22,831 nucleotides of DNA, taken from a virus. The DNA is taken from positions 1-22,831 of the IMG/VR virus record IMGVR_UViG_3300014913_000084; one strand, written 5' to 3'. The notes beneath the pieces are model-generated. The model searched no databases. It had not been told where the DNA came from and was given only the letters and a program-made list of their open reading frames with translations. This document shows positions 1,107 to 9,698 of this stretch, piece by piece. Within the stretch, counting starts at the first letter, position 1, and the number at the start of each line of letters is the position of its first letter. Made by a program: the position numbers and the translations under genes.

Positions 1107-1146
1107 TTGACTTGCAGATTGGGGCAGTATTACTGTTGTCTATAAC
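1107..1146 (+). promoter_or_regulatory. Possible promoter for the terminase operon
   Basis: TTGACT at 1107-1112 resembles a -35 box and TATTAC at 1128-1133 a -10 box, with a short 15-bp spacer. An alternative -10, TATAAC at 1141-1146, has only the weak TTGGGG (1119-1124) as -35 partner. Either would start transcription shortly before the terminase small subunit start at 1172. The preceding A-rich run (1099-1105) would suit an UP-like element. Confidence 0.3.
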
Positions 1147-1171
1147 GAGATTGGAGCATGGAGATTGGTTT

Positions 1172-2047
1172 ATGGCGAGGAAGAGGAAAATCGGAGGTTA
1201 TTCAAAGACACTGCACAGCGGCGTAAAGCAGGAGCCCGTAAGCCGCATGGGGATAGACCCCGTTTTGCTCAGTGACAGTCCTATTGAGCCGGGGGCAGAT
1301 CTTGAGGCCGAGGCGGCCAGCAAGGATTTGTCAGTGCGCAGGTTGCTATTTTGCTATTATTACGCGAATACGTTGAATGGGAAGCAGTCAGCTATATCGG
1401 CTAAATTTTCGCCGAAGACAGCGGCGTCAACCGCCGTAGCGTTGTTGAAAGATCCCCGCATCATAATGGAGATTCGCAATATTCAGAATCGCAAGCTCCG
1501 TGCTTTAAACCGTGAGCTTGTCAATAAATCGATTACGCATGAGCGAGTTCTGGAGGAGTTGGCCTATATTGCGTTTTTCAATCCGCAAGAGTGCTACGAC
1601 GAGCACAACAATCTATTGCCAGTTAACGAAATGCCCGAGCATGTCGCCCGCGCCATAGGCAGCTTGAAAGTGAAAGAGATATTCTCGCAGGGTGGAGACA
1701 GTGAATCTCGTGAGCGAATCGGGTTTCTTACCGAGATGAAACCTAACGATAAACTGAAGGCGTTGGAGATGCTGGCGAAAAACTTGGGGCTGTTAAATAT
1801 AAAGATAGACGTAAATCAGAAAGCCGAGATTACGCATAAGGTTCAAATACAGCAGATGAAAACACAATTCAAAAATCTTGAGGTTGAGGAGCTCGAGGTT
1901 TTGGCGAATCTGTTGCAGAAAGCCAGTGCTGATAACCGTGAGAAGAAGGCATTGACGAGTGGCAAACCTCCGCACGCGATAGATATCGAGCCAATAAAGA
2001 CCGCATCGGTGCTCGTAAAAGATGAAAACTCCGAGGATGAGGATTAA
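1172..2047 (+). CDS. terS: Terminase small subunit (Terminase_2-like)
   Basis: Predicted DNA-recognition subunit of the packaging motor: it binds the phage genome and hands it to the large subunit. The 291-residue protein begins MARKRKIGGYSK. Residues about 55-105 form a helix-turn-helix type region (RRLLFCYYYANTLNGKQSAI, then a segment ending LLKDPRIIMEI), typical of Terminase_2-type small subunits. Further family-like segments are ITHERVLEELAYIAF (about 121-135) and DKLKALEMLAKNLGL (about 193-207), and the C-terminus is acidic (NSEDED). The ATG at 1172 is preferred because GGAG at 1160-1163 sits 8 bases upstream; a TTG at 1112 extends the frame but has no SD and lies in the promoter region. 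The TerL gene starts 3 bases after the stop. It is longer than many small subunits. Confidence 0.85.
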   Translation: MARKRKIGGYSKTLHSGVKQEPVSRMGIDPVLLSDSPIEPGADLEAEAASKDLSVRRLLFCYYYANTLNGKQSAISAKFSPKTAASTAVALLKDPRIIMEIRNIQNRKLRALNRELVNKSITHERVLEELAYIAFFNPQECYDEHNNLLPVNEMPEHVARAIGSLKVKEIFSQGGDSESRERIGFLTEMKPNDKLKALEMLAKNLGLLNIKIDVNQKAEITHKVQIQQMKTQFKNLEVEELEVLANLLQKASADNREKKALTSGKPPHAIDIEPIKTASVLVKDENSEDED

Positions 2048-2050
2048 ATC

Positions 2051-2857
2051 TTGGAAGAGTTGTCTATTACAAAATCTGGTGAAATATATGAGCTCGAGGC
2101 TATAAACACAGTTTTAGCCGAAAAATCACTGGCTCATTTTGTAAAGCAAGCTTGGGAACAGGTAGAACCTGAGACGCAGTTGATATGGGGATGGCATCTC
2201 GACGCGATATGTGATCATTTGCAAGCTATATCTGCTGGACAAATAACGAGGTTAATCATCAACGTGCCTCCTCGGCATACTAAGTCCCTGTCGGTATCTG
2301 TGATGTGGCCGTGCTGGGAGTGGATTAGCCGCCCAGGAATAAAGTGGTTGTTCTCGTCATATGCGCACGACTTGAGCTTGCGTGACTCGGCAAAGTGCAG
2401 AAGACTGATACTAAGCGACTGGTATCAGGGTAGATGGGGTGATAGATTTTCTATTACGTCTGACCAGAACCAGAAGGTGAGGTTTGAAAATAATCATGCT
2501 GGGTATAGGCTAGCCTCGTCTGTTCGTGGGCAGAATACTGGGGAGGGAGGCGACAGAATAGTGTGCCTTCCATATGATACTCTGGTTGTTACATCATGCG
2601 GGGATATTGAAATAGGTGATATTGTCGATAATAGGCTTGATGTTTCTGTTTTGTCATTTAACCATGAGCTTGGAGTTGAAGAGTATGCCGAAATTGAAGA
2701 ATATAAAAAAAATCCAGCGAGAGATCTGCTTGAGATAGAACTTGAAGATGGCAGCACGCTAACATGCACTGAGGATCACGAGATTTATGTTGATGGGAAA
2801 GGGTATGTTAGGGCGATTGATTTGGAGATAGATGATGGGGTGTTTGTACAGGATTGA
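2051..2857 (+). CDS. terL: Terminase large subunit, N-terminal half fused to split-intein N half
   Basis: First piece of a fractured large terminase gene. Residues 1-171 are the TerL ATPase N-half: NVPPRHTKS (about 71-79) is the Walker A-type P-loop seen in phage terminases, followed by a typical region ending QNTGEGGDRIV. At C172 the protein becomes an intein: CLPYDTLVV (block A) and LTCTEDHEIYV (block B, with the TxxH signature). The frame stops at 2855-2857, 97 residues into the intein, so the ATPase is cut just before its Walker B acids. Initiation is probably at TTG 2051, with GAGGA at 2039-2043 as SD; no in-frame ATG occurs before residue 85. The partner is the gene at 3526-4626. The order of pieces and the intact splice residues indicate trans-splicing rather than decay. 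Confidence 0.88.
   Translation: MEELSITKSGEIYELEAINTVLAEKSLAHFVKQAWEQVEPETQLIWGWHLDAICDHLQAISAGQITRLIINVPPRHTKSLSVSVMWPCWEWISRPGIKWLFSSYAHDLSLRDSAKCRRLILSDWYQGRWGDRFSITSDQNQKVRFENNHAGYRLASSVRGQNTGEGGDRIVCLPYDTLVVTSCGDIEIGDIVDNRLDVSVLSFNHELGVEEYAEIEEYKKNPARDLLEIELEDGSTLTCTEDHEIYVDGKGYVRAIDLEIDDGVFVQD
2564..2854 (+). other. Split intein, N-terminal fragment (in TerL)
   Basis: 97-residue N-intein that starts at C172 of the TerL N-half, directly after GDRIV. Block A is CLPYDTLVV with the nucleophilic Cys1; block B is LTCTEDHEIYV with T and H in TxxH spacing. It ends ...DDGVFVQD at a stop codon. Combined with the 46-residue C-fragment (3526-3663), the splicing domain is 143 residues, a normal mini-intein size, so no core segment appears to be missing. 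Confidence 0.88.
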
Positions 2858-3536
2858 TTTCCCGTCTGGGAAGTCGTATATAGGGGTGACAAGTAAGCCT
2901 GCTGAATGGAGGTTAACAGAACATAAAAACGCGGCCCGTTCGACTGGTGATTTGGTTATCCATAAGGCAATAAGAAAATATGGCGAAAACTCATGCACGA
3001 TATCGACATTGGTTATATCTGACGATGATGATTATTTAAAAGCGATAGAGGTGTTAGCAATTAAAAAATTTAATACATTAACACCGAATGGATATAATAT
3101 GACATCCGGTGGCAATGGTGTTAATGGGCCATCCTCGCTTGCTACAAAAAGGAGGGTTGCGGCATTTAAAAAGACCGCGGCTACGAGAGAAAGCATCGAA
3201 AAACGGAGAGAGATTCATCGTAAAGCGTGGGATGACGATGAGAAGAGAGCGAAGAGAAGTGAGATGGTAAAGGAATTGTGGAAAGACCCGGCGTATAGAA
3301 AACATATGATCGAAGCTCATGCGTGGCAACGAAGTGACTTAGAATATAGAAAGAACGCTGCGAAGAGGGCTAGAGACATGTGGAAAGATCCTAAATATAG
3401 GGCAAGGATAATTGAGAGCAAACGGAGGGCAAGGATAAGAAAGAGACTGGTAATTGGGATAGAGCGATTGATTAGGTTAAAAAGGGCGAAGAGATATAAG
3501 GGCTTTTTCAATTTGGAGACTCTGAATGCAAATTAA
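2835..3536 (+). CDS. GIY-YIG homing endonuclease between split TerL halves
   Basis: Predicted site-specific DNA nuclease of the GIY-YIG superfamily, 233 residues. The catalytic module is N-terminal: LYRIDF and KSYIGVT (about 4-19) supply the paired tyrosine strands, then R26, H30, a KYG segment near 50, and E72 before the typical ending NGYNMTSGGNG. The rest (about 100-233) is very basic, with repeated WKDPAYR/WKDPKYR segments, probably a DNA-binding tail. ATG 2835 is preferred to ATG 2832: GGAG at 2824-2827 is 7 bases from 2835 and only 4 from 2832. The 5' end overlaps the TerL N-half by 23 bases, and the 3' end overlaps the TerL C-half by 11; all three lie in different frames. By position it should mobilise the split intein, cutting intein-free terL alleles; this is inferred. 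Confidence 0.85.
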   Translation: MGCLYRIDFPSGKSYIGVTSKPAEWRLTEHKNAARSTGDLVIHKAIRKYGENSCTISTLVISDDDDYLKAIEVLAIKKFNTLTPNGYNMTSGGNGVNGPSSLATKRRVAAFKKTAATRESIEKRREIHRKAWDDDEKRAKRSEMVKELWKDPAYRKHMIEAHAWQRSDLEYRKNAAKRARDMWKDPKYRARIIESKRRARIRKRLVIGIERLIRLKRAKRYKGFFNLETLNAN

Positions 3537-3663
3537 GAAAGTCAAAAGCATAAAAAGGGTAGAGAGAGATATCGATTATACTTACAACGTAAAAGTTGCT
3601 AGGAATCATAACTATTTTGCTAAAGACAAGTTATTGAAATCATTACCGATACTAGTCCATAAT
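3526..3663 (+). other. Split intein, C-terminal fragment (in TerL)
   Basis: 46-residue C-intein at the start of the second TerL gene. It contains block F (DYTYNVKVARNHNYFA) and block G (LPILVHN), ending in the required His-Asn, followed by Cys47 as the +1 extein nucleophile. It has its own ATG (3526) and SD (GGAG 3515-3518, 7-base spacing), so it is independently translated and would act in trans. Confidence 0.88.
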
Positions 3664-4626
3664 TGTGACGATCCTCATAATGTGAAAGAAGTTGAGTCAG
3701 ATGTTTCGAGGATAGAGACAATATTGTGGTGGGACGAGGTCATGTCAACTCGGTGCAATGATCCTAAGAGATCCGCGAGGGTTATTATAATGCAGAGATC
3801 ACATGAAGGAGATTTGACAGGCCACGTGCTCAGTAAAGAGGGTGTCGATTACGTGCATTTGTGTTTGCCAGCGAGATATGAACCAGACAGACTTCTGACG
3901 AGAACACCACTGGACTTTAAAGATCCGAGGACGAAACACGGCGAGCCGCTGTGCCCTGAAAGATATGGCGATAAGGAACTCGGGGAGCTTGAAGCGGAGC
4001 TCGGGGCCTATGCTTCTGCCGGTCAGTTACAACAGCGCCCTCACCCAAGGGGCGGTGGCATGTTTGAGGTCCACAAATTTGCGATTAAAGACAACATAGA
4101 CCCTGCGCAGATTGCTGTCGCAGTTAGGTATTGGGATAAGGCAGGGACGAGTGCGTTAGACGCCGATTCGTCTACCAAGAGAACTGCTGGCGTCCTGATG
4201 TATTACATGAAAGATAAATCGTTTGTTGTTGCAGATGTTGTAAAGGGGAAATGGTCGTCAACGATTAGGGAGAAGATAATACGGCAAACTGCCGAGATGG
4301 ACGGCAGAAAAGTTAGGATATGGATAGAGCAGGAGCCTGGATCTGGCGGCAAGGAATCTGCTGAAGGGACTGTCCGCAATCTCGCCGGGTATTCATGTAG
4401 ACCGGATAGAGTTACCGGGAGTAAGGAAGCCCGTGCCGATCAGTACGCTGCGCAAGTTGGCGTTGAGAATGTCGCTGTGCTCAGAAGGACATGGACGAGC
4501 GAGTTTATCCGTGAGCACGAGTCGTTCCCAACAGGTCGATACTCGGACCAATGCGATGCTGCGAGCGGAGCGTTCAACAAACTGTTCAAAACAAAGAGAG
4601 CGGGGACATGGGGCAAAAAACATTAA
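3526..4626 (+). CDS. terL: Terminase large subunit, split-intein C half plus C-terminal half
   Basis: Second piece of the fractured large terminase. After the 46-residue C-intein, the C-extein opens CDDPHNVKEVES: its DD supplies the Walker B acids, so splicing would rebuild RIVCDDPHN. Downstream are the ATPase coupling segment IIMQRSHEGDLTG (about 87-99), GQLQQRPHPRGGGMF, and a nuclease domain with likely catalytic acids in RYWDKAGT (D204), IWIEQEPG (about E268) and DAASGAFNKL (D344). The spliced protein would be 171 + 320 = 491 residues, normal for TerL. Translation starts at ATG 3526 with its own SD. The C-terminus TKRAGTWGKKH is almost repeated at the end of the next gene. The endonuclease gene at 4608 overlaps its last 19 bases. 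Confidence 0.9.
   Translation: MQIKKVKSIKRVERDIDYTYNVKVARNHNYFAKDKLLKSLPILVHNCDDPHNVKEVESDVSRIETILWWDEVMSTRCNDPKRSARVIIMQRSHEGDLTGHVLSKEGVDYVHLCLPARYEPDRLLTRTPLDFKDPRTKHGEPLCPERYGDKELGELEAELGAYASAGQLQQRPHPRGGGMFEVHKFAIKDNIDPAQIAVAVRYWDKAGTSALDADSSTKRTAGVLMYYMKDKSFVVADVVKGKWSSTIREKIIRQTAEMDGRKVRIWIEQEPGSGGKESAEGTVRNLAGYSCRPDRVTGSKEARADQYAAQVGVENVAVLRRTWTSEFIREHESFPTGRYSDQCDAASGAFNKLFKTKRAGTWGKKH
4591..4626 (+). repeat. Flanking direct repeat, upstream copy (TerL tail)
   Basis: 36 bp encoding TKRAGTWGKKH-stop in the TerL frame. It matches 5358-5393 at 30 of 36 positions, and most differences fall in the last third. The ATG at 4608, 17 bases into the repeat, starts the HNH gene. The repeat pair flanks the HNH gene like an insertion footprint or a captured end of the host gene. 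Confidence 0.8.
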
Positions 4627-5393
4627 TAAAATTTGTGCGTAAAACAGGAGGGAAGAGCAAAAGCAAAGCTGGCAAGAAATATAGGTATAGGCATTCTGAT
4701 GAGACGAGAAGAAAGATATCGGAAGCTAGGAAAGGCTATAAGATGCCGATTGCGCATAGAGCAGCTCTTTCTGAAGCTGCGAAGAAAAGAAAAATACACG
4801 GGCATACTGGGCGTAAGCACTCAGAAGAATCGAAGAGGAAGATGTCAGCTGCATTAACTGGGCATGCCCCAAACTCTACGTCTTTTAAGAAAGGAAATAT
4901 CCCATGGAATAAAGGGGCTAAAATGCCAGAAGAAGCCATTAGAAAAATGTCTAAAAAGCTAAAGGGTAGCACGCCATGGAATAAAGGCAAAAAGAATTGT
5001 TTTACAGAAGAAGCTATTCGCAAAATGTCTGACTCGCATAAAGGGCACGTGCATACGAATGAACAGAAATTAAAAATATCACTAGCCCTATCTGGTGATA
5101 AAGCTCCGCATTGGAAAGGCGGTATTGCGGTTGGTGAGTATTGTGATGCATGGGCTGATAAAGAGTTTAAGAGAGACATAAAAGAGAGAGATGGATATAA
5201 ATGCCAGAATCCATTATGTTATGGGGAATCAAATAATTTATGTATTCATCATATCGATTATGACAAGAAAAATTGTAATCCTTCTAATCTTATAACTATT
5301 TGTTTTAGCTGTAACGGCAGAGCGAATCATAATAGAGACTTTTGGGAAGAGTTTTATACAAAGAGAGCCGGGACATGGGGGAAGAGGCACTAA
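4608..5393 (+). CDS. NUMOD3-HNH homing endonuclease inserted at terL 3' end
   Basis: Predicted HNH homing endonuclease, 261 residues. Residues about 28-163 carry a chain of NUMOD3-type DNA-binding repeats (SDETRRKISEARKG, SEESKRKMSAALTG, PEEAIRKMSKKLKG, TEEAIRKMSDSHKG and a final NEQKLKISLALSG), with spacers such as IPWNKG and TPWNKG. The HNH module follows: CQNPLC (199-204), CIHHIDYDK (H214, H215), NPSNL, then CFSCNGRANHN, with four Cys in two pairs placed to bind zinc. The last residues, TKRAGTWGKRH, copy the TerL C-terminus. ATG 4608 is preferred to upstream candidates; GAGAG at 4596-4600 is a weak SD and coupling to TerL is likely. The stop TAA shares its last A with ATG 5393. The gene is A-rich and lysine-rich compared with TerL, as expected of a mobile element. 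Confidence 0.87.
   Translation: MGQKTLIKFVRKTGGKSKSKAGKKYRYRHSDETRRKISEARKGYKMPIAHRAALSEAAKKRKIHGHTGRKHSEESKRKMSAALTGHAPNSTSFKKGNIPWNKGAKMPEEAIRKMSKKLKGSTPWNKGKKNCFTEEAIRKMSDSHKGHVHTNEQKLKISLALSGDKAPHWKGGIAVGEYCDAWADKEFKRDIKERDGYKCQNPLCYGESNNLCIHHIDYDKKNCNPSNLITICFSCNGRANHNRDFWEEFYTKRAGTWGKRH
5358..5393 (+). repeat. Flanking direct repeat, downstream copy (HNH tail)
   Basis: 36 bp encoding TKRAGTWGKRH-stop in the HNH frame, the partner of 4591-4626. It likely keeps the original terL 3' end and the original junction to the next gene, because ATG 5393 overlaps its TAA and another ATG, at 5375, corresponds exactly to the HNH start ATG 4608. Confidence 0.8.
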
Positions 5394-6745: not shown

Positions 6746-8173
6746 ATGAAAAATGAATTAGCCACGAATAGGGCAATGAAGCTTGTTCATACGCTTGAAT
6801 CGACAATTGTCGAGAGATCGAAATTGATAGAACGTCTTGGGCTTTCTTATGGCGATGACAGAGATTTGTATAAGGCTCTTGGATATCGTAAAACACCAAA
6901 TTTTAGTGATTATTATACGAGGTACAAGAGACAGGATATCGCACGAAGAGTTGTGAATGCCCCTACTTCGGAATCATGGCGGATGAAGCCTATTATCACT
7001 GAGAATCAAGGCGAGAAGACAAAATTTGAAGAAGCGTGGGAAGCTCTCGTTAAGGACCATAGGATATGGCATTATCTTACTAGGGCAGACAGGATAAGCG
7101 GTATTGGCGAGTATGGCGTTTTACTAATGGGATTTAACGATGTATCGTCTGCTAAAGGGCTAAAAACTCCTGTAAATACAAAGTCTGATTCAACTGAGCT
7201 CATCTATCTTCAAGCGTACACCTCAAATAATGCCTCGATAAAATCGTTTGTTAGCGACACAAGAGATCCTAGGTTCGGGATGCCAGAGATCTATGAAATG
7301 AAAATACGCAGCAACTCTGGGTCATATAGCTATTCTGATTATGAGGTGCATTATTCAAGGGTTATTCATATAGCTGATGGGGCAGAAGAGAATGATGTAT
7401 ATGGTACGCCGAGATTACAATGCGTTTTGAATAGGCTTATGGATCTTGAAAAGGTTGTCGGTGGTAGTGCAGAGATGTTCTGGCGAGGGGCGTTTCCTGG
7501 ATTCGCATTGGAAGCAGAGGCAGACGCCAACATCGAAACATTAGATTTAGACGACCTCGAAGAAGAGATGCAGAATTATCTACATAATTTACAGCGGTAT
7601 ATCAGGCTACAGGGTATAAAGATAAATCAGTTAGACCCTCAGGTTGCCGACCCATCAAAACATTTCGATACAATAATCCAATTAATTTCCGCAGCTACAG
7701 ATATCCCAAAGCGGATACTTCTTGGATCTGAGCGTGGCGAACTCGCAAGCTCACAAGACGAAACGCATTGGAGCAAGTTTATTGATTCAAGGCGGGAGGA
7801 TTTCGTCGAACCTGTCATATTGAGACCTTTTATAGACAAAATGATTTCGGTAAAAATATTGCCGGAACCAACGTCTGGTAATTATTCTGTAAAATGGCCA
7901 GATCTTACGGCACCTACTGAGAAAACAAAAGCTGACATAAGAAGGATAAACACCGAGGCGTTATCAAGATACGTACTATCCCCTGGTGCAGATATAATTG
8001 TACCGCCTGAGATGTTCTTATCAGAAATACTTGGATGGAATGATGCGCAGATAAAGCAGGCGATGACTTTGTCTAAGAGAGATTTGGAACTTGATGATAT
8101 AGACCAAGACGTACAGGATGGTGGCGGGGGTGGCAGCCAGTCAACTGAGGTTGTAAAGGGTGGAGAGGAATAG
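6746..8173 (+). CDS. Portal protein (DUF1073/Acb1-N-like family)
   Basis: 475-residue portal, the ring at the head vertex through which DNA is pumped and on which TerL docks. Family-like features are the N-terminal RRVVNAPTSESWRMKP, ADRISGIGEYGVLLMGF, HYSRVIHIADGAEENDVYGTP, a long helix around LEEEMQNYLHNLQRYIRLQG, and the conserved DIPKRILLGSERGELASSQDE followed by WPDLTAPTEKTKADI. This layout fits the DUF1073 portal family. The C-terminus is a low-complexity acidic and glycine tail (DGGGGGSQST). ATG 6746 has AGAGA 5 bases upstream. Length is normal and no insertion is seen, unlike the neighbouring TerL and gpF-like genes. Confidence 0.88.
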   Translation: MKNELATNRAMKLVHTLESTIVERSKLIERLGLSYGDDRDLYKALGYRKTPNFSDYYTRYKRQDIARRVVNAPTSESWRMKPIITENQGEKTKFEEAWEALVKDHRIWHYLTRADRISGIGEYGVLLMGFNDVSSAKGLKTPVNTKSDSTELIYLQAYTSNNASIKSFVSDTRDPRFGMPEIYEMKIRSNSGSYSYSDYEVHYSRVIHIADGAEENDVYGTPRLQCVLNRLMDLEKVVGGSAEMFWRGAFPGFALEAEADANIETLDLDDLEEEMQNYLHNLQRYIRLQGIKINQLDPQVADPSKHFDTIIQLISAATDIPKRILLGSERGELASSQDETHWSKFIDSRREDFVEPVILRPFIDKMISVKILPEPTSGNYSVKWPDLTAPTEKTKADIRRINTEALSRYVLSPGADIIVPPEMFLSEILGWNDAQIKQAMTLSKRDLELDDIDQDVQDGGGGGSQSTEVVKGGEE

Positions 8174-8175
8174 GG

Positions 8176-8352
8176 ATGGATTCTGATAAGTTTGATGAAT
8201 GGATTGAACACTTGGAAAACTTAACTCATCCAATAAATAAGTCGAGAGAAATAATTGATATCGTTAAATATCTTAAATTAAAGAAGAATGAACGCGTAAA
8301 CGCTGTAGGGACCGAACAATGCAATGTAACTGTGGCCACATACACAACTTAG
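8176..8352 (+). CDS. Small hypothetical protein between portal and head morphogenesis genes
   Basis: 58 residues, MDSDKFDEWIEHLENL..., starting 2 bases after the portal stop with a purine-rich SD (GGAGAGG) upstream. The sequence is helical and charged (REIIDIVKYLKLKKNERV). The last 34 bases overlap the start of the next gene in another frame. Not recognised. Confidence 0.5.
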   Translation: MDSDKFDEWIEHLENLTHPINKSREIIDIVKYLKLKKNERVNAVGTEQCNVTVATYTT

Positions 8353-9698
8353 AATCACATGATCTTACGTTTAATGAGATAGCGAGAACTGATCCAACGC
8401 ATACCACAACATTGCGTAATGCGTTTATTTCTGAGGTGAATAGACGGTTCAATGGGCTGAAAAGGATTATAAAAAAAGCTGTAGTTGATTACGACGTGTT
8501 TGGGCTGATTCCTATTGAGACGCTTGAGATTACGCCGGAAGAAGCTGTTGCCACGATTACGGCGAGGCAATATGCTTTCATGCGGTCAGGTGAAAAAGTT
8601 GACGCATTTATGGCGTGGCTTAGCGAGATGGAAAAGGAGCAAATCCTAGAGGTAACATATCGATTTGGTGGTATCAGAGGAGTTGAGGAGGCTTGGACCG
8701 ATACGTACATACAGTCTGCTTATCAGAAGGGGATAATAAGTTCGAGACAACGGATGAGGGCAAAAGGTATCGATATTCCTATGTTTGAGGAAAGTGTTGG
8801 ATCGCTTGCAGGATTATTCAACACTCCATTTTTTGCAGATCGCGTTGGTTTACTTTTTACACGGACTTTTAATGAGTTAAAGGGCGTTACCAACGCAATG
8901 GACCAGCAAATAAGCAGGGTACTGGCGCAAGGCATGGCTGAAGGAAAACACCCACTTGAAATAGCGAGGATGCTTAATAACAGGGTCGATAAAATTGGTA
9001 TAACAAGGGCAAGGATGATTGCCAGGACTGAAATTATAAGAGCCCATCACCTTGCTAGTATAAATGAGTATCGCAATGCAGGGATAATCGGTGTAGAGGT
9101 ATTGGCTGAGTGGATGACAGCGGGGACAGGCGTTTGCGAATTGTGCGCTCCACTTGAGGGGAAGATTTTTAGCTTGGATACGATAGAAAATATGATACCC
9201 GCCCACCCGAACTGTCTACCAGATGGCGATAGCGTTGTTCATACGCGAGATGGGCAAAAGGCGATAAAGGATATCGTTGTTGGTGATTTTGTTTTGACGC
9301 ATAAATTGAGGTACCGTCCAGTTATAAAGACTCATGCCAATAGAGTTCATGGATTTAACGAGGTTAAGATCGGCACATATGGTAAAAACAAAATGTCAAT
9401 ATCAACAACAGCAGATCACCCTATAATGGTAAATGATGAGTGGGTAAGTGCAAATTATATTTTTTGTGGTGATAATGTAAAATGTATTACTGATGAATAT
9501 GATGGCGAATGTGAATTTAGTGGTCGTATTGTTGATAGTGTTGAGAATAAGTGGGTTGATAACGAGGCGATTCTCTATAATCTATCTGTTGATGAAGATG
9601 AGAGCTATGTAGCAAATGGGTTTGTTGTCCATAACTGCCGTTGTGTTGCGATTCCAATATTGCCTGAACACATACCACGAAGGACGAGGATATATTAG
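8319..9698 (+). CDS. Head morphogenesis protein (Mu gpF/SPP1 gp7-like) with in-frame intein
   Basis: 459-residue precursor; 318 residues after splicing. The host protein is a minor head protein of the phage Mu gpF/SPP1 gp7 family: GITRARMIARTEIIRAHHLA (about 227-246), EWMTAGTGVCELCAPLEGK, then the family-typical HPNCRC motif. That motif is split by a 141-residue intein (C299-N439), so the precursor reads HPN-intein-CRC. The N-terminus MQCNCGHIH is Cys/His-rich. ATG 8319 lies inside the preceding small gene, with AGGG about 8 bases upstream. It probably acts in head assembly at the portal. Splicing is needed to restore CELC...HPNCRC, a likely metal-binding cysteine set. Confidence 0.88.
   Translation: MQCNCGHIHNLESHDLTFNEIARTDPTHTTTLRNAFISEVNRRFNGLKRIIKKAVVDYDVFGLIPIETLEITPEEAVATITARQYAFMRSGEKVDAFMAWLSEMEKEQILEVTYRFGGIRGVEEAWTDTYIQSAYQKGIISSRQRMRAKGIDIPMFEESVGSLAGLFNTPFFADRVGLLFTRTFNELKGVTNAMDQQISRVLAQGMAEGKHPLEIARMLNNRVDKIGITRARMIARTEIIRAHHLASINEYRNAGIIGVEVLAEWMTAGTGVCELCAPLEGKIFSLDTIENMIPAHPNCLPDGDSVVHTRDGQKAIKDIVVGDFVLTHKLRYRPVIKTHANRVHGFNEVKIGTYGKNKMSISTTADHPIMVNDEWVSANYIFCGDNVKCITDEYDGECEFSGRIVDSVENKWVDNEAILYNLSVDEDESYVANGFVVHNCRCVAIPILPEHIPRRTRIY
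9213..9635 (+). other. Cis-splicing mini-intein in head morphogenesis gene
   Basis: 141 residues, from Cys299 to Asn439 of the precursor. Block A is CLPDGDSVVHT and block B is MSISTTADHPIMV (TxxH). The C-terminal blocks are ILYNLSVDEDESYVANG and FVVHN, followed by Cys as +1 residue. No LAGLIDADG, HNH or GIY-YIG domain fits in the space, so it cannot move itself. All expected catalytic residues are visible, so it should be active. Its splice chemistry (Cys1, HN, Cys+1) matches the split TerL intein. Confidence 0.88.

What the first reader, a model, noticed from the sequence alone, without database searches (positions are those of the whole stretch)
2051..4626. Three-piece terminase: split intein in the TerL Walker B motif with a GIY-YIG gene between the halves
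Seen: TerL is cut after GDRIV and resumes at CDDPHN; the missing joint is filled by intein block A/B ending in a stop, then a separate GIY-YIG gene, then a new ATG with block F/G and its own SD. The three genes are in three different frames and overlap by 23 and 11 bases, each with an SD. Known: fractured genes with split inteins flanking a free-standing endonuclease were described from marine metagenomes (Dassa et al. 2009), there with a Vsr-like endonuclease family. Inference: this is the same architecture with a GIY-YIG enzyme, at the catalytic heart of the packaging ATPase, so DNA packaging depends on trans-splicing.
Basis: partly seen in the sequence, partly recalled or inferred. Interest (0 to 1): 0.85.

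Follow-up and report, generated by a model that had tools for sequence, protein, structure and literature searches.

The report
Phage packaging gene broken by intein
In this uncultured phage the gene for the DNA-packaging motor is cut in two inside its ATPase core by a split self-splicing protein with a separate homing-endonuclease gene between the halves; this is a new member of a known kind, but related phages show a whole series of states at the same site, including inteins whose linker also encodes a hidden endonuclease in another reading frame.

Summary
ORF1 (2051-2857) is the TerL N-half plus a 97-aa intein N-fragment. A GIY-YIG gene (2835-3536) follows, then ORF3 (3526-4626), a 46-aa intein C-fragment plus the TerL C-half. 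They lie in three frames, overlap by 23 and 11 nt, and the last two have a GGAG upstream. Assembly error is excluded: a second strain (L183) has the same frames, and several divergent contigs are broken at the same Walker B site.

The interpretation (fractured gene, trans-splicing) is well supported but untested.

New is the context. One intein site carries GIY-YIG, HNH, antisense HNH, decayed endonucleases or none. In seven unbroken relatives an HNH gene is nested in the +1 frame of the intein linker, and the intein frame has 0 stops against about 9-15 expected; an eighth, Gordonia phage Clown, is weaker. In fractured loci stops are near chance level. This suggests, but does not prove, that fractured genes arise from inteins invaded out of frame. 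A precedent for hidden HNH genes exists (ShiLan, without an intein).

The parts
1112..2047 (+). terS, terminase small subunit (Terminase_2)
   Evidence: Pfam E 2e-22
2051..2857 (+). terL part 1: N-extein plus intein N-fragment, TTG start
2051..2563 (+). TerL N-extein, 171 aa, ATPase N-half ending GEGGDRIV just before the Walker B acidic residues
   Evidence: contiguous with the C-extein in intein-free relatives
2564..2854 (+). Intein N-fragment, 97 aa: Cys1 (2564-2566), block B TEDH (2768-2779)
   Evidence: Pfam Intein_splicing sub-threshold; profile vs PDB NrdJ-1 intein 8ubs E 5e-19
2824..2827 (+). GGAG Shine-Dalgarno-like site 7 nt before ATG 2835
   Evidence: sequence
2835..3536 (+). GIY-YIG homing endonuclease gene, 233 aa; residues R26, H30, E72, N88 conserved; C-terminal WKDPxYR repeats
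   Evidence: PF01541 E 2e-5 on trimmed protein; PHROG homing endonucleases; I-TevI 1mk0 E 5e-9; AlphaFold model matches I-TevI, TM(target) 0.80
3515..3518 (+). GGAG Shine-Dalgarno-like site 7 nt before ATG 3526
   Evidence: sequence
3526..4626 (+). terL part 2: intein C-fragment plus C-extein
3526..3663 (+). Intein C-fragment, 46 aa, block F YNVKVARNHNYFA, block G VHN; 7-8 aa longer than relatives between F and G
   Evidence: alignment of 7 lineages
3664..4626 (+). TerL C-extein, 320 aa, Cys+1 then DDPHN (Walker B), nuclease domain
   Evidence: Terminase_6C; 57% identical to intein-free TerLs L002-L004

Best explanation
The terL gene is a 'fractured gene'. A class 1 naturally split intein of the NrdJ-1/DnaE type interrupts the Walker B strand of the packaging ATPase, one codon before the DD pair, and its two halves are carried on two TerL polypeptides. 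A free-standing I-TevI-like GIY-YIG homing endonuclease is translated from its own overlapping ORF between them. The halves associate, the intein excises itself using Cys1, block B His, the C-terminal His-Asn and Cys+1, and a 491-aa TerL results with a Cys in place of the usual V/I/W before DD. The endonuclease cuts intein-free terL alleles and the whole 1.1-kb cassette is copied in by repair. Shown: anatomy, conservation, exact empty sites, sequence and structural homology of the parts, recurrence in independent lineages. Inferred: splicing, cutting and homing.
For: Frames and overlaps and an independent strain. Same site broken in divergent lineages with 1-, 4-, 10- or 64-nt overlaps. Invariant splicing residues. 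Intein homology to NrdJ-1 and DnaE. I-TevI fold and conserved GIY-YIG residues. Intein-free TerLs contiguous at the site, with V/I/W/L/F/A and never Cys at +1. The intein is more alike between distant TerLs (53-57%) than the exteins are (26-34%), as expected for a mobile element. The GIY-YIG genes of three such loci form one clade (100/97) apart from other phage GIY-YIG genes. No Rfam intron.
Against: Nothing here measures splicing or cutting. The window IntC has a 7-8-aa extension between blocks F and G that no relative has, which could slow splicing. Pfam Intein_splicing scores stay below the curated cut-off for each half. No near-identical intein-free allele of the same phage was found, so homing itself is not documented at this site.
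Confidence: 0.9

Rival explanations
1. The two TerL halves work as a two-subunit enzyme without splicing, as described for a phage ribonucleotide reductase split by a homing endonuclease gene.
For: Gene breaks by endonucleases with function kept by two peptides are known (mentioned in PMC10448857). Splicing is not shown here.
Against: The break lies in the Walker B strand itself; both halves end in complete intein fragments whose catalytic residues are invariant over about 50% divergence. An unspliced two-subunit enzyme would not conserve these.
Confidence: 0.05
2. Programmed frameshifting joins the three ORFs into one cis intein with an embedded GIY-YIG domain.
For: ORFs overlap in different frames.
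Against: Frame order differs between lineages (IntN/GIY/IntC 1/2/0 in the window, 2/1/0 and 1/0/2 in the L084 and L098 groups), overlaps are the TAATG and ATGA type of translational coupling in relatives, and the middle ORF has its own SD in the window. One relative has the middle gene antisense.
Confidence: 0.02
3. The breaks are assembly or sequencing errors, or terL is a decaying pseudogene.
For: Metagenomic contig.
Against: Independent strain with identical frames, independent lineages with the same break, TerL halves without internal stops and with conserved motifs.
Confidence: 0.01

Closest known systems
AceL NrdHF split intein (Ace Lake metagenome, PMC7891396)
   Same: Fractured gene, GIY-YIG putative homing endonuclease between the halves, split at the usual endonuclease site, 98+48 aa against 97+46 here
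   Different: Host gene is nrdHF; class 3 intein (Ala1), trans-splicing proven; here class 1 (Cys1), terL
Fractured genes of Dassa et al. 2009 (NAR, gkp095; not held, known from memory and citations)
   Same: Gene broken by a split intein around a free-standing endonuclease gene; the nearest solved relative of this IntN is NrdJ-1 (8ubs), which from memory comes from that set
   Different: There mainly DNA-synthesis and repair enzymes and a Vsr-like endonuclease in about half of the loci; here a packaging ATPase and GIY-YIG
AceL-TerL, GOS-TerL, Cat-TerL split inteins (PMC11766414)
   Same: Natural split inteins in phage TerL, experimentally trans-splicing
   Different: Atypical split with a 25-37 aa N-piece and 104-115 aa C-piece. 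Vibrio phage K469 has a similar-looking TerL with a GIY-YIG fused to the N-piece, at another TerL site
Mycobacteriophage TerL1-e Walker B inteins (PMC5050341)
   Same: Intein in TerL Walker B, shown to splice; sites a and b of that TerL lie one residue apart, like the one-codon shift between window and L084/L098
   Different: Continuous (cis) inteins; the passages read describe no fractured gene or GIY-YIG gene
Klebsiella phage KP13-7 nrdA, Lactobacillus phage CL2 terL, Pseudomonas phage MIJ3 PolB
   Same: Isolate phages with split-intein genes; GIY-YIG (KP13-7) or HNH (CL2, MIJ3) between halves (MIJ3 from PMC6892783)
   Different: Other host genes or another TerL site; of the three I found only MIJ3 described as a split intein
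ShiLan domain (PMC11855218)
   Same: HNH gene hidden out of frame in an insertion that stays open in the host frame, like the dual-coding relatives found here
   Different: In a DNA methylase and with no intein splicing domain; here inside genuine inteins of TerL

Membership tests
Fractured gene with split intein | Conserved gene broken in two ORFs, each carrying one intein half at the break | tested here: met
Fractured gene with split intein | Free-standing endonuclease ORF between the halves | tested here: met
   GIY-YIG ORF 2835-3536
Fractured gene with split intein | Homologues without the insert are contiguous at that point | tested here: met
   about 60 intein-free TerLs
Naturally split class 1 intein | Cys/Ser at position 1, TxxH in block B, HN at the C-end, C/S/T at +1 | tested here: met
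   invariant over 6-7 lineages
Naturally split class 1 intein | Homology to known split inteins | tested here: met
   NrdJ-1 E 5e-19, DnaE about 1e-12
Naturally split class 1 intein | Trans-splicing activity | not testable with these tools
   needs co-expression
AceL-TerL type atypical split intein | Short N-fragment of about 25-37 aa | tested here: not met
   N-fragment is 97 aa
GIY-YIG homing endonuclease | GIY-YIG domain with catalytic Tyr, Arg, His, Glu, Asn | tested here: met
   Y15, R26, H30, E72, N88 invariant over 14 sequences; I-TevI fold
GIY-YIG homing endonuclease | Cuts the intein-free allele at the insertion site | not testable with these tools
   needs cleavage assay
Group I/II intron | Rfam intron match | tested here: not met
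   no Rfam match in the window

The most novel reading that the evidence does not exclude
At one TerL site a series of states links ordinary inteins to fractured genes. In unbroken relatives a whole HNH endonuclease gene is nested in the +1 frame (or antisense) of the intein linker, and the intein frame is held free of stops by selection (0 against about 9-15 expected in seven sense-strand lineages, P<1/5000 each, one of them the cultured Synechococcus phage S-EIVl; Gordonia phage Clown shows the same layout with weaker support, P 0.04). Other lineages keep both intein halves in one frame with the endonuclease in the other, but with stops near the chance level. Reading: fractured genes, and so natural split inteins, arise when an intein invaded out of frame gives up dual coding and acquires a start codon for its C-half; low GC makes this likely. 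Direction is not proven, the fractured GIY-YIG loci may have another route, and an unread preprint (bioRxiv 2025.01.02.630785) may describe part of this.
Probability: 0.5. Interest if true: 0.78.

Novelty: new member of a known kind. Interest (0 to 1): 0.52.

Why it matters
The packaging motor is essential, so if trans-splicing is confirmed the phage's assembly depends on a split intein at the catalytic heart of the ATPase, and the parts could serve as a new split intein. More generally, the site now offers mini-intein, dual-coding intein, fractured gene with live endonuclease and fractured gene with dead endonuclease in related phages, so the old question of how natural split inteins arise can be tested on real intermediates, one of them in the cultured phage S-EIVl.

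Tried and rejected
Assembly error: rejected by L183 and divergent lineages. Group I intron: no Rfam hit. Programmed frameshift: frame order not conserved. GIY-YIG monophyly versus HNH on the intein tree: not resolved; four GIY contexts as one clade are not rejected (p-AU 0.115), so I do not claim which endonuclease came first. The TerL tree has L125 and L128 on very long branches, so the number of acquisitions is not firm. Selection on the intein could not be measured between window and L183 (no differences there). Codon permutation is uninformative for in-register antisense nesting; a codon-usage test was used instead and gives only moderate support for BUCT618 and L207 (P 0.002 and 0.012). 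The permutation test for Clown is weak (P 0.04, GC 66%). A PDB search with ORF3 found nothing. No near-identical phage in INPHARED. Dassa 2009 and the Gosselin preprint were not held. L205, L206, L210 and L216 were not fully characterised (N-part missing or cut).

Full report
What the window holds. The window is an entire IMG/VR virus record of 22,831 bases with a head-gene cassette: terS (1112-2047), terL, portal (6746-8173), a MuF-like head protein (8319-9698), a DUF2213 protein and a capsid-like protein. terL is in two ORFs around a third one. ORF1, 2051-2857, TTG start, is 171 aa of TerL ending GEGGDRIV followed by 97 aa starting CLPYD and containing CTEDH (intein blocks A and B). The middle ORF starts at ATG 2835 (2832 is possible) and ends at 3536. 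ORF3, 3526-4626, is 46 aa of intein C-fragment ending VHN and 320 aa of TerL starting CDDPHN. Overlaps are 23 and 11 nt; GGAG lies 7 nt before each of the two later ATGs.

Are the parts what they seem? Both intein halves match Pfam Intein_splicing only below the cut-off. A profile of six homologous N-fragments, however, finds NrdJ-1 (PDB 8ubs, E 5e-19) and DnaE split inteins (about 1e-12) first. Cys1, the block B Thr and His, the C-terminal His-Asn and Cys+1 are invariant in six to seven lineages. The middle protein matches PF01541 GIY-YIG at E 2e-5 when trimmed (the whole protein gave no GIY-YIG hit, probably because of its repetitive basic tail), homing-endonuclease PHROGs, and I-TevI at E 5e-9 by profile. 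Its AlphaFold model (mean pLDDT 88) matches the I-TevI catalytic domain with TM 0.80 on the target. Y15, R26, H30, E72 and N88 are invariant over 14 relatives. The TerL halves match TerL PHROGs, and the C-half Terminase_6C.

Is the break real? L183, a scaffold filed under a Ca. Shapirobacteria MAG, carries the same locus from a slightly different strain (14 mismatches in 2,881 nt; no HNH gene after terL) with identical frames and no difference over 2564-3663. Divergent contigs are broken at the same place: L084 and copies, L098/L099, L131/L132, L125, L128-L130, and later L191, L195, L196, L213 and L218. Overlaps there are 1, 4, 10 or 64 nt. About 60 intein-free TerLs are contiguous at the site, with V, I, W, L, F or A and never Cys before DD. 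So the insertion is precise and leaves a Cys in the Walker B strand. In L084 and L098 the site is shifted by one codon (C-I-DD instead of C-DD); one-residue-apart TerL sites are known in mycobacteriophages (PMC5050341).

Mobility. Between the window and L125 the intein halves are 53% and 57% identical while the TerL halves are 34% and 26%; across all pairs intein identity stays at 41-61% however far the TerLs have diverged. The six Walker B split inteins group together (87/91, 1 change; weaker with fewer rows). The GIY-YIG genes of window, L084 and L098 form a clade (100/97) apart from GIY-YIG genes of other phages, including those in the split inteins of KP13-7 and K469. So intein and GIY-YIG have travelled together for long, and the intein has probably moved between distant TerLs.

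The middle gene is exchangeable. At the same site L084, L098, L196 and the window have GIY-YIG; L131 has a 133-aa remnant that keeps only about the first 27 residues of the GIY-YIG domain; L125, L191, L195 and L213 have a zinc-finger HNH gene (the Pfam HNH scores are below cut-off for L125 and L195 and absent for L191, where the motif is read by eye, as it is for L213, which was not scanned); L128 has an HNH-like gene on the opposite strand (read by eye, no Pfam hit); L218 has an HNH gene broken by a frame change (by eye). The TerL halves stay intact where the endonuclease has decayed, as expected if splicing is needed and homing is not.

Unexpected: dual-coding relatives. A scan of IMG/VR for the splice junction also found unbroken terL genes at this site. 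Some have short mini-inteins (L199, L201, L212, L214, L215). Six others (L186=L189, L193, L194, L200, L203, L219) have an insert of 0.9-1.2 kb with an odd linker in the intein frame, and a complete HNH gene in the +1 frame inside it (Pfam HNH above cut-off for L200, L203 and L219; the other three read by eye). I permuted synonymous codons of the nested gene, which keeps its protein and codon usage, and counted stops in the intein frame: 0 observed against 8.7-15.1 expected in each of the six, P<1/5000 each. The cultured Synechococcus phage S-EIVl terL shows the same (0 against 12.0, P<1/5000). Gordonia phage Clown has the same arrangement with weaker statistics because of its 66% GC (0 against 2.75, P 0.04). 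E. coli phage BUCT618 and contig L207 carry an HNH gene on the opposite strand of an unbroken intein and lack TTA/CTA/TCA codons in it (P 0.002 and 0.012). In eight fractured loci tested by permutation, stops in that frame sit at or close to the permutation mean (P 0.03-0.98). Three of them (L191, L195, L213) still have IntN and IntC in one frame and the HNH in +1, exactly as in the unbroken set, only with 31-39 stops; their inserts have 28-32% GC against 47-57% in the six metagenomic dual-coding inserts.

Reading. For the window itself: a fractured terL that must be trans-spliced, with a GIY-YIG homing endonuclease as the mobile partner (confidence 0.9 for the arrangement and its purpose; splicing and cutting untested). 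For the family: an endonuclease gene that lands out of frame in an intein can persist either by dual coding or by breaking the gene, and breaking makes a split intein. Direction is inference; the GIY-YIG loci have no dual-coding counterpart in this sample. The loci were chosen by one junction pattern, so their proportions mean nothing.

Known or new. A fractured gene with GIY-YIG is published (AceL NrdHF, PMC7891396). Split TerL inteins are published and shown to splice (PMC11766414), as are Walker B TerL inteins (PMC5050341). Hidden out-of-frame HNH genes are published for the ShiLan insertion in phage methylases, which has no splicing domain (PMC11855218). That paper cites a preprint on non-canonical actinobacteriophage inteins that I could not read. 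So the window is a new member of a known kind. The dual-coding TerL inteins and their link to fractured genes were not found in the searchable literature, but that library is incomplete.

Noticed in passing
window 4551-5393 and L183 2845-3376: A NUMOD3/HNH homing-endonuclease gene sits at the 3' end of terL. L183 is a near-identical strain without it (empty site). In the window terL ends in a recoded copy of its last 12 codons (4591-4626), the original tail (5358-5393) now ends the HNH ORF, and most differences between the strains cluster at 4468-4621, like a co-conversion tract.
   Followed up: partly
window 9213-9635 in the ORF 8319-9698: A second, continuous 141-aa mini-intein in the MuF-like head protein (AHPN|CLPDGDS...VVHN|CRC).
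   Followed up: no
L186, L193, L194, L200, L203, L219, L118 (Gordonia phage Clown), L221 (Synechococcus phage S-EIVl): Unbroken TerL inteins with a complete HNH endonuclease gene nested in the +1 frame; intein frame kept free of stops, strongly in seven, weakly in Clown.
   Followed up: yes
L119 (E. coli phage BUCT618) and L207: NUMOD4/HNH-like gene on the opposite strand inside an unbroken TerL intein, avoiding TTA/CTA/TCA codons.
   Followed up: partly
L123 (Klebsiella phage KP13-7): nrdA with apparently two inteins in pieces: a GIY-YIG gene between the halves of the first, an HNH-like gene between the halves of the second; the pieces are mostly annotated as hypothetical proteins.
   Followed up: partly
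L120 (Vibrio phage K469 and relatives): T4-type terL with a short intein N-piece fused in frame to a GIY-YIG domain, followed by an overlapping ORF with the intein C-piece and the rest of TerL; annotated simply as terminase.
   Followed up: partly
L137, L140, L144, L148, L153, L175: Intein N-fragments of about 100 aa ending in a stop, mostly after motifs such as VKWDG or KYDGEN that look like the active site of DNA or RNA ligases; probably further fractured genes.
   Followed up: no
L192: TerL with two inteins, one in Walker A and one at the Walker B site; near copy L199 has only the Walker B one.
   Followed up: no
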